Shown piece after piece: positions 26,965-32,868 of a stretch of DNA of 33,101 bases. The stretch lies in contig QHYH01000149.1 in NCBI GenBank assembly GCA_003223215.1, positions 1 through 33,101 of the forward strand, read 5' to 3'. The notes beneath the pieces are model-generated. The model was given only the letters and a program-made list of their open reading frames with translations. It had not been told where the DNA came from and made no database searches. Each line of letters opens with the position of its first letter. Position 1 is the stretch's first letter. A program made the translations under genes and the position numbers. Origin of the DNA: Acidobacteriota bacterium (lineage in GTDB: Bacteria > Acidobacteriota > Terriglobia > Acidiferrales > UBA7541).

Positions 26965-27056
26965 CGCAGCCAGCCATAGCACTTGGCCGCTCGTCGGATT
27001 CTTGCAGCCAGCAGGCATGCGTGGTCGACGGCGGCTACGGCGAATTCGTCAAATGA
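26965..27056 (+). pseudogene. Possible C-terminal remnant of a short-chain dehydrogenase/reductase
   Basis: One plus-strand frame reads ...ALGRSSDSCSQQACVVDGGYGEFVK and stops at TGA 27054. The VVDGG ending with preceding S-S-D is the usual C-terminal end of SDR enzymes. No start, no Rossmann motif and no Tyr-x3-Lys are found upstream, so at most a fragment is left. It overlaps the end of the HxlR gene by 8 bases. SDR genes often sit beside HxlR regulators, which supports the reading, but the match is short. Confidence 0.35.
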
Positions 27057-27546
27057 GGCGTTGGTGCGCTTCACTGGGGCCGAGGGATCCGCCGCCAAGC
27101 CGCGGAATCAGTTTCGATGAGCGGTTCCAATGAGTTTGGTTCTGCTTCCAGCGCTCGCGGATCCCTTCGAGGAATTTTTGCTTGTCCTTTTCCATCAGCC
27201 GGACGAGGGCTTGGTTTTCCGTTTTCTCGTGCCGCCCGGCCCACAGCACCATTTCGGTCAGCACTGGCGCAAGATCAATCCCTTTTGGCGTCAGCCGGTA
27301 AATGAGCTTTCGCCCGTCGGAGGGATCGCTCTCGGTCCGGATGATTCCATACGCTCCGAGCTTGCGCAGCCGGTCGGCCAATATGTTCGTCGCAATTCTT
27401 TCGTGGGAGCCTAGAAATTCCTTGAACCTTTGCGACCCGAGCAACATCATGTCCCGGATGATCAGCAGCGACCAGCGGTCGCCCAGCATCTCGAGCGAAG
27501 CATTCAGCGGGCAGCCCGACCGCCACTTTGGCTTTCTCTTTGCCAT
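27049..27546 (-). CDS. HxlR-family winged-helix transcription regulator
   Basis: A 165-residue protein with the HxlR core: CPLNASLEMLGDRWSLLIIRD near residues 12-32 (with the typical single Cys12), RFKEFLGSHERIATNILADRL as the recognition region, and a wing YRLTPKGIDLAPVL. These regulators often respond to redox or aldehyde stress through the conserved Cys. It is divergent from the GyrI-like gene, 90 bases apart, with a perfect palindrome in between. No strong ribosome binding site precedes the ATG at 27546, so the message may have a very short leader. Confidence 0.93.
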   Translation of the reverse strand: MAKRKPKWRSGCPLNASLEMLGDRWSLLIIRDMMLLGSQRFKEFLGSHERIATNILADRLRKLGAYGIIRTESDPSDGRKLIYRLTPKGIDLAPVLTEMVLWAGRHEKTENQALVRLMEKDKQKFLEGIRERWKQNQTHWNRSSKLIPRLGGGSLGPSEAHQRLI

Positions 27547-27567
27547 TGTTTCACACTAGCATTTTTA

Positions 27568-27584
27568 ACTTGCATTTTGCAAGT
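27568..27584. promoter_or_regulatory. Palindromic operator candidate ACTTGCA-TTT-TGCAAGT
   Basis: A perfect 7-bp inverted repeat with a 3-base centre in the 90-base gap between the HxlR gene and the GyrI-like gene, 22 bases ahead of the HxlR ATG. A further half-site ACTTG follows at 27586-27590. Position and symmetry fit an HxlR dimer site controlling both genes; this is inferred. Confidence 0.6.
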
Positions 27585-27636
27585 GACTTGGGCACACTTA
27601 CGACGCCAGGTCTCGCCGCCGCGCCGGAGGATGCCC

Positions 27637-28152
27637 ATGACTCACGCAGCAACAAAACCATCGCAGGCCCGGCAACTCGAACCACCGCGCTTCGAAAACG
27701 GCAAAGCCTTGCTCATCGCCGGGCTGCGCAGCGATTACACCCCCGAATCCATGAACGACCTTCCCGTTCAATGGCAGCGCCTTGTCCCGCACCTCGGGAA
27801 AATCCCCGGACAGATTGGCCGCACTGCCTATGGCGTGAGCTGGTGCCCGGAGAACTCGCCGGCCATTAGCTACCTTTGCGGAGTCGAGGTCTCCGATTTC
27901 TCGAGCCTTCCCCTTGAATTCACGATTGTCAGCATCCCCGCACAACGTTACGCGGTCTTCTCTCATCGCGGGCACGTTTCCCGGATTCGCGAGACCATCG
28001 AAGCCATCGGTAGCAAGTGGTTCCCCGAATCCGTCCAGGAACCCGCACGACGATCCGGGGAAGCGCCGGATTTCTTCGAGCGCTACACCGAACAATTCGA
28101 TCCGCGCACCGGAATGGGCGGAATGGAAATCTGGATACCGGTCAAATGCTAA
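27637..28152 (+). CDS. GyrI-like small-molecule-binding protein
   Basis: A 171-residue soluble protein of the GyrI-like/AraC effector-binding fold: ALLIAGLRSDYT at the first strand, VSWCPENSPAISYLCGVEV, IPAQRYAVFSHRGHVSRI (the most conserved segment) and a C-terminal GMEIWIPV strand. Such stand-alone domains bind hydrophobic or cationic compounds and some hydrolyse them; the ligand here is unknown. The ATG at 27637 is preferred over the one at 27631 because GGAGG (27626-27630) sits 6 bases upstream. It lies divergent to HxlR across a palindrome and 9 bases before the next gene. Confidence 0.85.
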   Translation: MTHAATKPSQARQLEPPRFENGKALLIAGLRSDYTPESMNDLPVQWQRLVPHLGKIPGQIGRTAYGVSWCPENSPAISYLCGVEVSDFSSLPLEFTIVSIPAQRYAVFSHRGHVSRIRETIEAIGSKWFPESVQEPARRSGEAPDFFERYTEQFDPRTGMGGMEIWIPVKC

Positions 28153-28624: not shown

Positions 28625-28643
28625 AAAGGGAGAGGAGCATTTC

Positions 28644-29831
28644 ATGAGCAAAGTTCGCGTGCTGGTGGGGACAAGGAAAGGTGCGTTCATTCTGACGGCG
28701 GACGGCAAACGCGAAAAATGGACCGTCAGCGGCCCGCATTTTGCCGGCTGGGAGATTTATCACATGAAAGGATCGCCCGCGAGTCCCAACCGCATTTACG
28801 CCTCGCAGACCAGCGGCTGGTTCGGGCAGATTATCCAACGCTCCGATGACGGTGGCAAAACTTGGATCCAGCCGGGAACACCCCCGGGCGAATCCACCAC
28901 GGGGCCGGGAGGAGCGCCCAAGGCCGAAAGCAACAAATTCGTCTACGACACTTCCGCGGAAACCGGCAAGCCCCTCACCACGCACCAATGGTACGACGGC
29001 ACGCAGCATCCGTGGGAGTTCAAGCGCGTCTGGCACATTGAACCCTCGCTCACCGAACCAGACGTCGTCTACGCCGGTGTCGAGGATGCCGCCATCTTCC
29101 GTTCGAAAGACGGCGGCAAATCCTGGCAAGAGCTTTCGGGACTTCGCGGCCACGGCACGGGTCCGCAGTGGCAGCCAGGCGCTGGTGGCATGTGTCTGCA
29201 TAGCATCCTTCACGATCCCAGCAATCCTAAGCGCATGGTCATCGCCATCTCTGCCGCGGGCGCGTTTCGAACCGACGATGGCGGCAAAACCTGGAAGCCC
29301 ATCAACAAAGGCCTGCACTCGCAATACATTCCCAATCCCACCGCCGAAGTGGGCCATTGCGTCCATCACATCGCAATGAACGGAACGCGTCCCAACGTTC
29401 TATTCATGCAAAAGCATTGGGACGTGATGCGCAGCGACGACGCGGGCGACAGCTGGAAAGAAGTCAGCGGCAATCTGCCCACCGACTTCGGCTTCGTCAT
29501 CGACGTCCACGCGCACGAACCGGAAACTATTTACGTCATTCCCATCAAGAGCGACGGCGAGCATTACGTGCATGAAGGAAAGCTGCGTGTGTATCGCAGC
29601 CGCGCCGGTGGAAACGAATGGGAGCCTCTGACCAAGGGCCTGCCGCAGAAAGATTGCTACGTCAACGTGCTGCGCGACGCCATGGCCGTCGACTCGCTGG
29701 AAAAATGCGGCGTCTATTTCGGCACCACGGGCGGGCAGGTTTATTGCTCCGCCAATGCCGGAAACAGTTGGAAGGCCATCGTGCATGATTTGCCGGCCGT
29801 CTTGTCCGTCGAGGTACAAACGCTGCGATGA
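28644..29831 (+). CDS. Cytoplasmic BNR/Asp-box beta-propeller protein (sortilin-like)
   Basis: A 395-residue protein lacking a signal peptide. Five Asp-box motifs of the form S-x-D-x-G-x-T-W are present: [40 protein letters not shown] and a weaker CSANAGNSW. This predicts a beta-propeller like those in sialidases and sortilin. Sialidase active-site arginines are not evident, so the common label exo-sialidase is not justified. The cytoplasmic location is unusual for Asp-box proteins. The ATG follows AGGAG by 8 bases. Its last four bases overlap the MoaD-like gene (ATGA), so the two products are made together; the function is unknown. Confidence 0.85.
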
Positions 29832-30145
29832 CCGGCTCGCCCACAGGCAAGATCCGAATTATCCTTCCCCCGCATTTGCGCGGGCTGGCGCACGTCAAAG
29901 GAGAGATTTCCCTAGACGTCGCCGGCCCGCCCACGGTGCGCTCCGTGCTCGACGCGCTCGAAGCCACCTATCCGATGCTGCAGGGAACCATTCGCGACCA
30001 CGTCACACAACAGCGGCGGCCGTTCTTACGCTTCTTCGCGTGCGAAGAAGATCTTTCTCACGAATCGCCGGACGCTCCCCTGCCCGACGCGGTGGTCTCC
30101 GGGAAGGAGCCGTTGCTCATTCTCGGCGCCATTGCCGGCGGCTGA
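29828..30145 (+). CDS. MoaD/ThiS-family ubiquitin-like protein ending in Gly-Gly
   Basis: A 105-residue protein with the beta-grasp pattern of Moa[13 protein letters not shown], a [16 protein letters not shown] helix, [14 protein letters not shown], and a C-terminal [10 protein letters not shown]. The terminal Gly-Gly is needed for thiocarboxylate formation in sulfur carriers or for conjugation in ubiquitin-like proteins. No ThiF/MoeB activator, MoaE or JAB protease is encoded nearby, so its pathway cannot be read from context. It overlaps the BNR-repeat gene by four bases and has no other clear partner. Confidence 0.88.
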
Positions 30146-31221: not shown

Positions 31222-31503
31222 ATGTGCCGCAACATCAAAACGCTTTTCCATTTCGATCCGCCGGTGACGGCCGAAGAGGTGCGCGCCGCTTCCCTGCAGT
31301 TCGTCCGGAAAATCACGGGCTTCCACCACCCGTCAAAAGCCAACGAGGCCGCGTTCAACGCGGCCATTGACGAGATCGCCCGCGCCTCGGTGCGCCTGTT
31401 GCAGTCTCTAGAAACCTCCGCTCCGCGGCGCCATCGCGAAGCCGAAGCCGCCAAGGCTCGCGCCCGCGCCGCCGCGCGGTTTGGCCCCGCCGCAGCCGAC
31501 TGA
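31222..31503 (+). CDS. DUF2277 family protein
   Basis: A 93-residue soluble protein that matches DUF2277 from end to end: MCRNIKTLFHFDPPVT at the start, QFVRKITGFHHPSKANEAAF in the middle and RLLQSLETSAPRRHREAEA near the end. The family is common in actinobacteria and acidobacteria and has no known function. The invariant Cys2 and the R-K-I-x-G-F stretch are both kept. A TATACT at 31155-31160 may be a -10 box, with no good -35. It is divergent from the small membrane protein. Confidence 0.9.
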   Translation: MCRNIKTLFHFDPPVTAEEVRAASLQFVRKITGFHHPSKANEAAFNAAIDEIARASVRLLQSLETSAPRRHREAEAAKARARAAARFGPAAAD

Positions 31504-31926
31504 GGCAGTCGTAAACAGTTAGATGAGGAGAATCCTCCCGACAAGCTCGGCAGGATGCATGCCCGCCGGCAATACACGACTCGGAACGAAGTGAGGAAAT
31601 CTTCCTACTCACGAGCGGGTGATTCCGTAACGCCAAGGAAGGCGAAGAGAGCCGCATTTCAGAAGATTGCGCGCGTGAGAGTTTACTTGAAAGGTTCTGG
31701 GAAAGCAGTCCTTTTGACGGGGTTCGCGCGGTGAACCATAATGTCGCGGACCAGTCGGCAGCTCTCACATGCTGACTTTTTTAGGATACGCGTTTACGAG
31801 ACAAGGATGAGGAGCATAAGATTGGGCCACCCATGGACGTTTGCCATGATGTCTTTGTATCCGGGATTGCGGGAGAGAATTAGCCTGAGGAGCTCATCAG
31901 GGAAGTAAGCTATCGGGGAGGCGGAT
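31504..31926. other. Gene-free stretch with repeat-like sequence
   Basis: None of the frames looks like protein with a proper start. The left part (about 31530-31620) has phrases such as GGAGAATCCTCC and GACTCGGAACGAAGTGAGGAAAT, of the kind found as scattered intergenic repeats in acidobacterial genomes; this is recollection of style, not a database match. A terminator-like hairpin lies at 31754-31782, and the pirin ribosome binding site GGGGAGG at the right end. Confidence 0.4.
31754..31782 (+). terminator. Rho-independent terminator candidate
   Basis: GTCGGC (31754-31759) pairs with GCTGAC (31771-31776), including one G-T pair, with an 11-base loop, and six T residues follow directly. It would end transcription coming from the DUF2277 side. 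Confidence 0.5.
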
Positions 31927-32868
31927 ATGTCACTGCGGCCGGTGAAGAGGCTGATACGGGCGAAGCCGACGGTGGAAGGCGCGGGGGTGCACCTGCGGCG
32001 GGCGTTCGGATTCGGCAACACGAAGGAGTTCGATCCGTTCCTGCTGCTGGACGATTTTCGCAATGACGTGCCCGCGGATTATCTGGCGGGCTTTCCGTGG
32101 CATCCGCACCGCGGCATCGAGACGATTACGTATGTACTTTCCGGTACGGTGGAACACGGAGACAGCATGGGGAATCGCGGAACGATTGCCGCGGGCGACG
32201 TCCAGTGGATGACCGCGGGCGGCGGGATCATCCACCAGGAGATGCCCAAGGGCGATCCCGCCGGGCGCATGCACGGGTTTCAGTTGTGGGCGAACCTGCC
32301 CTCGGCGCTGAAGATGACGCCGCCGCGCTACCAGGAAGTGAAAGCCGTGGAGATTCCCGAGATTACTGATGACGACGGGACGCAAGTGCGCGTGGTGTGC
32401 GGGAAGTTTTGGGGCAAGACGGGGCCGGTCGAAGGCATCGCGGCGGACCCGATTTATTTGGATGTGAGTGTGCCGCCGGGGCGGCGGAAGATGCTGCCGG
32501 TGGGAGTGACACGGCACGCGTTCGCCTACGTGTTCGCGGGCACGGGGAAATTCTGCAACGCCTCAGAACCGCTGGAGGTTCCGACGGAGCCAGTGGGATG
32601 GCTGGAAACCGCGCCTCCTCCCTCGGAGGCGGACAACCGGTCCCTCGTGCTGTTCGACCGCGGCGATGAGTTGATGGTGCAGGCGGGAGAGGAAGGAATC
32701 CGCTTCCTGCTGGTGTCGGGCAAGCCGCTCGAGGAGCCGGTGGCGTGGTACGGGCCGATTGTGATGAATACGCAGGAGCAGTTGCGCGAGGCGTTCCGTG
32801 AGCTAGAGCAGGGGACGTTCCTGAAGGCGCACAAGAAGGCAGCGCCCTTCGGTTCTGCCTCAGGGTGA
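31927..32868 (+). CDS. Pirin family protein
   Basis: A 313-residue bicupin protein. The four metal ligands of pirin are all present in the N-terminal cupin: His59 and His61 (WHPHRGIET), His103 and Glu105 (GIIHQEM). RAFGFGNTKEFDPFLLLDDF and GTVEHGDSMGNRG are further pirin hallmarks. The C-terminal cupin (about 190-290) lacks ligands, as usual. Bacterial pirins bind iron; some have quercetin dioxygenase activity and others modulate metabolic enzymes. The ATG follows GGGGAGG by 5 bases. The gene stands alone between a repeat-rich gap and a transposase fragment. Confidence 0.95.
   Translation: MSLRPVKRLIRAKPTVEGAGVHLRRAFGFGNTKEFDPFLLLDDFRNDVPADYLAGFPWHPHRGIETITYVLSGTVEHGDSMGNRGTIAAGDVQWMTAGGGIIHQEMPKGDPAGRMHGFQLWANLPSALKMTPPRYQEVKAVEIPEITDDDGTQVRVVCGKFWGKTGPVEGIAADPIYLDVSVPPGRRKMLPVGVTRHAFAYVFAGTGKFCNASEPLEVPTEPVGWLETAPPPSEADNRSLVLFDRGDELMVQAGEEGIRFLLVSGKPLEEPVAWYGPIVMNTQEQLREAFRELEQGTFLKAHKKAAPFGSASG

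What the first reader, a model, noticed from the sequence alone, without database searches (positions are those of the whole stretch)
28644..30145. Cytoplasmic BNR propeller coupled to a Gly-Gly ubiquitin-like protein
A five-Asp-box propeller without a signal peptide overlaps a MoaD/ThiS-like gene ending in AIAGG. No E1-like activator, MoaE or JAB protease is nearby, so this is not ordinary molybdopterin or thiamine synthesis. The propeller may be a partner, target or scaffold of the carrier: a possible undescribed sulfur-transfer or conjugation system. I recall such pairs in other soil bacteria but cannot verify it here.
Basis: partly seen in the sequence, partly recalled or inferred. Interest (0 to 1): 0.65.

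Follow-up and report, generated by a model that had tools for sequence, protein, structure and literature searches.

The report
Ubiquitin-like carrier paired with propeller protein
A small ubiquitin-like protein and a cytoplasmic propeller-shaped protein of unknown function are encoded side by side, and sometimes as one fused protein, in several groups of bacteria, which points to an unrecognised sulfur-transfer enzyme system.

Summary
The propeller (28644-29831) overlaps by 4 nt a ubiquitin-like carrier gene (29828-30145) ending AIAGG. The pair is not rare. In a 297-genome sample of the window's phylum, 96 of 111 propeller places (103 genomes) have a carrier on the same strand within 2.5 kb, in both gene orders. 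In an actinomycete-phylum sample 61 of 80 fetched propeller regions do, 11 of them as natural carrier-propeller fusions, all with GG at the junction. Of 127 distinct complete carriers 126 keep GG; 21 have residues after it. The carrier's nearest solved relatives are SAMP1 and the sulfur carrier CysO. MoaE is not its partner: this genome has its own MoaD-MoaE. In three genomes an E1-rhodanese gene lies 72-186 nt from the pair. The propeller belongs with PDB 3b7f, function 'Not known', and has an invariant His/Gln/Arg/Lys/Trp set. Best reading: a sulfur-carrier/acceptor pair working like MoaD-MoaE or CysO-CysM, with a propeller as new acceptor. Binding, sulfur chemistry and substrate are unshown. 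My searches found no paper on the pair.

The parts
28644..29831 (+). Cytoplasmic Asp-box propeller, 395 aa, 3b7f family (seven blades inferred from 3b7f)
   Evidence: AF2 pLDDT 87.4; Foldseek 3b7f TM 0.82/0.88; VIA Z 49.1, rmsd 2.1 over 355 residues
29828..30145 (+). Ubiquitin-like (beta-grasp) carrier, 105 aa, C-terminal AIAGG
   Evidence: family profile hits CysO 3dwg E 2.9e-13 and 4n6e; AF2 pLDDT 89.0; SAMP1, CysO
29828..29831 (+). ATGA overlap of stop and start codons (translational coupling inferred)
   Evidence: the same -4 spacing in 25 of the 29 loci with a carrier among the 30 nearest
30137..30142 (+). Gly-Gly codons of the carrier tail
   Evidence: GG kept in 126 of 127 distinct complete carriers
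28677..29675 (+). Span of invariant or near-invariant propeller residues K12, W130, W176, H186, S203, H241, Q256, H258, P300, R344 (candidate pocket)
   Evidence: 107 rows, non-redundant at 85%; place at strand starts/ends read from DSSP of the model; that they form one pocket is inferred
28628..28639 (+). Shine-Dalgarno-like stretch before the propeller
   Evidence: read by eye

Best explanation
A two-protein sulfur-transfer module. Proposed steps: (1) the carrier is made next to, or as one chain with, the propeller, and where residues follow the GG a JAB-type protease trims back to GG (inferred); (2) an E1-rhodanese of MoeB/MoeZ type, usually encoded elsewhere, adenylates and thiocarboxylates the GG tail (inferred; gene adjacency shown in 3 genomes); (3) the tail docks on the cytosolic propeller, whose invariant Lys/His/Gln/Arg/Trp residues help pass the sulfur to a small-molecule or protein acceptor (inferred). 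Shown here: pairing, fusion with retained GG, folds, invariant residues, E1 adjacency. Substrate unknown.
For: Pairing in 96 of 111 places, both orders (57 downstream, 39 upstream); 61 of 80 fetched regions in the actinomycete phylum; 8 of 12 opened plasmid loci. On a quick tree of 132 propellers the states up/down/fused need only 6 changes, so the link outlasted rearrangements. No third gene recurred in a crude clustering of 20 pair loci. Fusions: 11, all with GG, linkers of about 5-25 residues. ThiF-rhodanese gene 186, 131 and 72 nt from the pair in G210, G192, G185, three families. E1 family in 80 of 80 (80 of the 92 pair genomes given) and 59 of 60 pair genomes, against 67 of 80 genomes of the window's phylum without a propeller match. 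JAB hit in 27 of 27 tested genomes with a fused or extended carrier, but in 28 of 33 with terminal GG (post hoc, one-sided p about 0.04 by hand). Precedents: MoaX fusion must be cut after GG to work (PMC4326299, abstract and outline); a JAMM enzyme cleaves a MoaD-MoaE fusion (PMC8832034, passages); one MoeZR serves MoaD and CysO (PMC3227635, passages).
Against: E1 beside the pair in only 3 genomes (G119 has one about 10 kb off; none in the flanks of the 80 actinomycete-phylum regions or the 25 named actinomycete pair loci); elsewhere the link is co-presence, with genome size and lineage as confounders. G518 has the pair but no E1 hit. 15 of 111 places and 19 of 80 regions show no carrier nearby; 51 of 51 Streptomyces loci and three Rhodobacterales plasmid loci have the propeller alone yet keep the same residues. 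One carrier (Nonomuraea, L046) lacks GG. No known carrier-dependent chemistry on an Asp-box propeller (my knowledge). No direct evidence of binding, thiocarboxylate or catalysis; no complex model was run.
Confidence: 0.5

Rival explanations
1. Non-covalent complex: the carrier is a regulatory or structural subunit whose GG tail binds in the propeller without sulfur chemistry, as sortilin and Ycf48 propellers bind peptides.
For: Fold neighbours include Ycf48 with D1 peptide and sortilin with neurotensin or progranulin peptide (titles only); GG kept even inside fusions with linkers as short as 5 residues; E1 adjacency is rare.
Against: E1-rhodanese adjacency in 3 genomes; strict GG is typical of activated carriers (general knowledge); 21 carriers have variable residues after GG, which fits trimming better than a fixed free tail.
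Confidence: 0.22
2. Protein modifier: the carrier is conjugated to targets, the propeller being substrate, adaptor or site of modification (for example the conserved Lys12).
For: SAMP1 is the closest fold; Lys12 kept in 104 of 105 rows; E1 and JAB hits in most pair genomes tested.
Against: No third gene recurs beside the pair (E2/E3 families were not searched for); the E1s beside the pair carry rhodanese domains, which points to sulfur.
Confidence: 0.14
3. Spare MoaD or ThiS for ordinary cofactor synthesis, next to the propeller by inertia.
For: Same superfamily; MoaE in 77 of 80 pair genomes given.
Against: Own MoaD-MoaE in this genome and a MoaD-MoaE fusion in G210; pair kept in 3 of 80 genomes without a MoaE match; fusion to the propeller and retention through order changes.
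Confidence: 0.03
4. The propeller is an intracellular glycosidase, as databases label it, and the carrier only affects its expression or stability.
For: Database names; GH74 propellers come next in the fold ranking.
Against: 3b7f is listed with seven blades and GH33 sialidases with six (PMC2716378, passages); no sialidase family over cut-off; a carrier fused at the N-terminus implies the cytosol (inference).
Confidence: 0.08

Closest known systems
MoaD-MoaE (molybdopterin synthase), incl. MoaX fusion
   Same: Small GG carrier beside or fused to its partner; GG at the fusion junction; E1-rhodanese activation known for it in mycobacteria
   Different: Partner is an Asp-box propeller; separate from this genome's MoaD-MoaE
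CysO-CysM with Mec and MoeZ (M. tuberculosis)
   Same: Best solved sequence relative of the carrier family (3dwg, E 2.9e-13)
   Different: Partner is not a PLP enzyme; E1 is rarely beside the pair, and JAB was not seen beside it
BexX/CysO (4n6e, Amycolatopsis)
   Same: Second-best sequence relative; carrier serving a specialised enzyme (recalled)
   Different: BexX is not a propeller (recalled; only the PDB title was seen)
SAMP1 (Haloferax)
   Same: Closest fold of the carrier model (3po0, TM 0.72/0.83)
   Different: No evidence of conjugation here
PDB 3b7f, Ralstonia eutropha BNR propeller
   Same: Same propeller family (E 3.2e-65; Z 49.1)
   Different: Structure without a known function; no carrier mentioned in the passages seen
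Ycf48/HCF136 and sortilin propellers
   Same: Asp-box propellers solved with bound peptides (titles)
   Different: Ycf48 model scores 22 bits against a cut-off of 326

Membership tests
ThiS/MoaD/CysO-type sulfur carriers | beta-grasp fold | tested here: met
   model pLDDT 89.0; SAMP1, CysO
ThiS/MoaD/CysO-type sulfur carriers | C-terminal Gly-Gly | tested here: met
   window; in relatives 126 of 127 keep GG, 94 of them strictly terminal
ThiS/MoaD/CysO-type sulfur carriers | E1 available | tested here: met
   own genome: 3 ThiF matches over cut-off, one with a rhodanese domain
ThiS/MoaD/CysO-type sulfur carriers | thiocarboxylate formed | not testable with these tools
   needs mass spectrometry
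MoaD of molybdopterin synthase | is the MoaD that goes with MoaE | tested here: not met
   MoaE lies beside another ThiS-family gene at C271
ThiS of thiamine synthesis | serves ThiG | not tested
   another ThiS hit at C99, neighbourhood not examined
GH33 sialidase | six-bladed catalytic propeller | tested here: not met
   best match by far is 3b7f, listed with 7 blades; GH33 listed with 6
GH33 sialidase | catalytic residues (Arg triad, Asp, Tyr/Glu; recalled) | tested here: inconclusive
   no coordinates to superpose; no sialidase family over cut-off
Ycf48/HCF136 | family model over cut-off | tested here: not met
   NF010237 22 bits, cut-off 326; PSII_BNR 23.6, cut-off 27
3b7f propeller family | full-length homology and fold | tested here: met

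The most novel reading that the evidence does not exclude
An unrecognised class of protein-thiocarboxylate-dependent enzyme whose sulfur-accepting subunit is a cytosolic seven-bladed Asp-box propeller, spread over several bacterial phyla, with JAB-matured fusion versions, making a sulfur metabolite or modification not yet known.
Probability: 0.4. Interest if true: 0.85.

Novelty: new variant of a known kind. Interest (0 to 1): 0.7.

Why it matters
Sulfur carriers have been understood through their partner enzymes. Here a large family of propellers, annotated as sialidases and with an orphan crystal structure, gains a likely partner and a directly testable function. If true it adds a new fold to carrier-dependent sulfur chemistry and corrects a widespread annotation.

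Tried and rejected
MoaD/MoaE service: rejected. Local operon with a third gene: none seen in an all-against-all comparison of 20 pair loci and 15 loci without adjacent carrier. That clustering was crude: its largest group was a blob of mixed reading frames that I did not take apart; other groups shared by more than a few loci were shadow frames or the Streptomyces chromosome around the lone propeller. A propeller-type carrier elsewhere in genomes with a lone propeller: in the four such regions opened (two Streptomyces, Yinghuangia, Nocardioides) and in one pair genome the spare carrier lies beside a long ORF, scanned in the two Streptomyces only and there a threonine synthase; no trans partner identified. 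Phage or defence link: one PHROG of unknown function (E 1.6e-07) and one PADLOC hit at E 0.041 for the propeller, none for the carrier. Carrier search on plasmids with the window protein alone: no match; the family profile was needed. Literature: (open-access PMC only) listed no paper on the pair that I could recognise; Iyer 2006 (PMC1779556) has no 'propeller', 'sialidase' or 'BNR' in its main text; propeller mentions in PMC1949818 and PMC1796856 concern other domains in the passages shown; PMC11895460 was seen in a listing only. One search was swamped by homocysteine papers, so trimming of QbsE and HcyS, which I recall, is not used as evidence.

Full report
Observation. The propeller is 395 aa with, by eye, four canonical and two degenerate Asp-boxes and no apparent signal peptide; the carrier is 105 aa, ends AIAGG and starts inside the propeller's stop codon (ATGA).

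What the proteins are. The propeller's one strong solved relative is 3b7f from Ralstonia eutropha (E 3.2e-65; Z 49.1, rmsd 2.1 over 355 residues). A 2009 survey of Asp-box propellers lists it with seven blades and function 'Not known' (PMC2716378, passages). The carrier model (pLDDT 89.0, low at the tail) matches SAMP1, CysO, the CysO of the BexX complex and Urm1; the family profile hits CysO at 2.9e-13. The window carrier alone has no Pfam hit; 4 of 10 family members hit ThiS.

The pair is a unit. Comparing places with a carrier profile run on the same genomes, 96 of 111 places, in 92 of 103 genomes, have a carrier on the same strand within 2.5 kb, 93 of them within 250 nt; 57 downstream and 39 upstream. 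In the 30 nearest loci, 29 have the GG carrier beside the propeller, 25 with the 4-nt overlap; in the thirtieth (G084) it lies 1.76 kb downstream. Among 80 named actinomycete loci, 25 have it: 25 of 29 outside Streptomyces and 0 of 51 in Streptomyces. In 12 of 16 matching plasmid records opened, 8 have it: upstream in Pseudomonas, Burkholderia (2), Cupriavidus, Paraburkholderia and Mitsuaria, downstream in Nonomuraea and Arthrobacter; three Rhodobacterales and one Streptomyces lack it. In a sample of the phylum of G300 (an Amycolatopsis), 80 of 296 genomes have the propeller, and 61 of 80 fetched regions have the carrier (34 downstream, 27 upstream including fusions).

Fusions. Eleven of those 61 are single chains, carrier first. 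All end the carrier part in A-I/V-S-G-G; what follows varies in length (about 5 to 25 residues; two of the eleven read by eye because the script's motif missed them) and sequence, with Ala or Ser first in 9 of 11. Over all sets, counting one duplicate locus once, 94 carriers end in GG, 21 have 1-25 variable residues after it, 11 are fused and 1 lacks GG; one further carrier is cut by a contig end. A conserved GG that need not be terminal is what one expects if a protease restores it, as shown for MoaX (PMC4326299, abstract) and for a MoaD-MoaE fusion cut by a JAMM enzyme (PMC8832034, passages). G210 in this sample carries just such a MoaD-MoaE fusion.

History. On a FastTree tree of 132 propellers the states upstream, downstream and fused change 6 times at least, 16 with 'none' included. 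Partners that stay together through order changes and fusion are very probably functionally linked. Many branches of that quick tree are weakly supported (44 of 125 inner branches starred), and near-copies inflate clustering; G084 is scored 'none' there although its carrier lies just beyond the stretch held.

Activation. The window has no E1 or JAB that I saw, but the genome has, in one cluster, a cysteine-synthase-like PLP enzyme (best model cysM, below its cut-off), a JAB, a CysO-like carrier (tail GGCCCC) and a ThiF-rhodanese protein; elsewhere a threonine synthase with its own carrier, and MoaD-MoaE. In three genomes of three families a ThiF-rhodanese gene lies beside the pair: 186 nt behind the carrier (G210), 131 nt before the propeller (G192), 72 nt away divergently (G185) (gene starts from a simple ORF caller). 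By hand, uniform placement would give about 0.02 such cases in the 140 pair genomes with E1 searches. No E1 was found in the flanks of the 80 actinomycete-phylum regions or of the 25 named actinomycete pair loci. G185 has no MoaE match. E1 matches: 80 of 80 and 59 of 60 pair genomes against 67 of 80 genomes without a propeller match; genome size and lineage confound this. One MoeZR serving two kinds of carrier has precedent (PMC3227635, passages). JAB: 55 of 60 pair genomes; 27 of 27 with fused or extended carriers (the window's genome counted here for its second carrier), 28 of 33 with terminal GG; five further genomes with extended carriers were not given to that call.

Pocket. In 107 non-redundant propellers W176, H186 and H241 are invariant, and K12, W130, S203, Q256, H258, P300 and R344 are kept in 99%; of the 16-17 rows without an adjacent carrier at most one departs at each. 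In the model these lie at the starts of inner strands or the ends of the next strand, that is, by propeller convention, on one face; this placement is inferred, as no coordinates were at hand. The chain's N-terminus, where fusions attach, appears to enter at the opposite face, so a short uncut linker should not let the GG reach the pocket: another hint of trimming, but weak.

Verdict. A carrier-acceptor pair that works like MoaD-MoaE or CysO-CysM is the best reading (0.5). Membership in the carrier superfamily is met on fold, tail and E1 availability; thiocarboxylate is untested. A non-covalent complex (0.22) and conjugation (0.14) remain. What the propeller does with the sulfur, if anything, is open.

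Noticed in passing
L180:8353-10458 (own genome, contig C243): The second propeller of this genome is the C-terminal part of a Ser/Thr-kinase-propeller chain (Pkinase E 8.4e-51), followed by a carrier ending SGG-CGSALTIF.
   Followed up: partly
L266:2688-5735 and L267:4533-6184: Own genome: cysteine-synthase-like enzyme, JAB, CysO-like carrier (GGCCCC) and ThiF-rhodanese protein in one cluster; threonine synthase with a carrier ending GGSEGC.
   Followed up: partly
G014:C155, G259:C3, G114:C19 and similar: Carrier and E1 matches in what look like the same open frames of about 485-570 aa: probable carrier-E1 fusions.
   Followed up: no
Streptomyces loci, e.g. L058, L268, L269: Lone propellers with the same conserved residues; spare carrier beside a threonine synthase in the two Streptomyces regions opened.
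   Followed up: partly
window 27052-28149: HxlR regulator and, on the other strand, a GyrI-like small-molecule binding protein upstream of the pair.
   Followed up: no
window 31222-32868: DUF2277 protein and a pirin downstream.
   Followed up: no
L014 / G084:C24: Carrier 1.76 kb downstream of the propeller on the same strand, with other sequence in between.
   Followed up: partly
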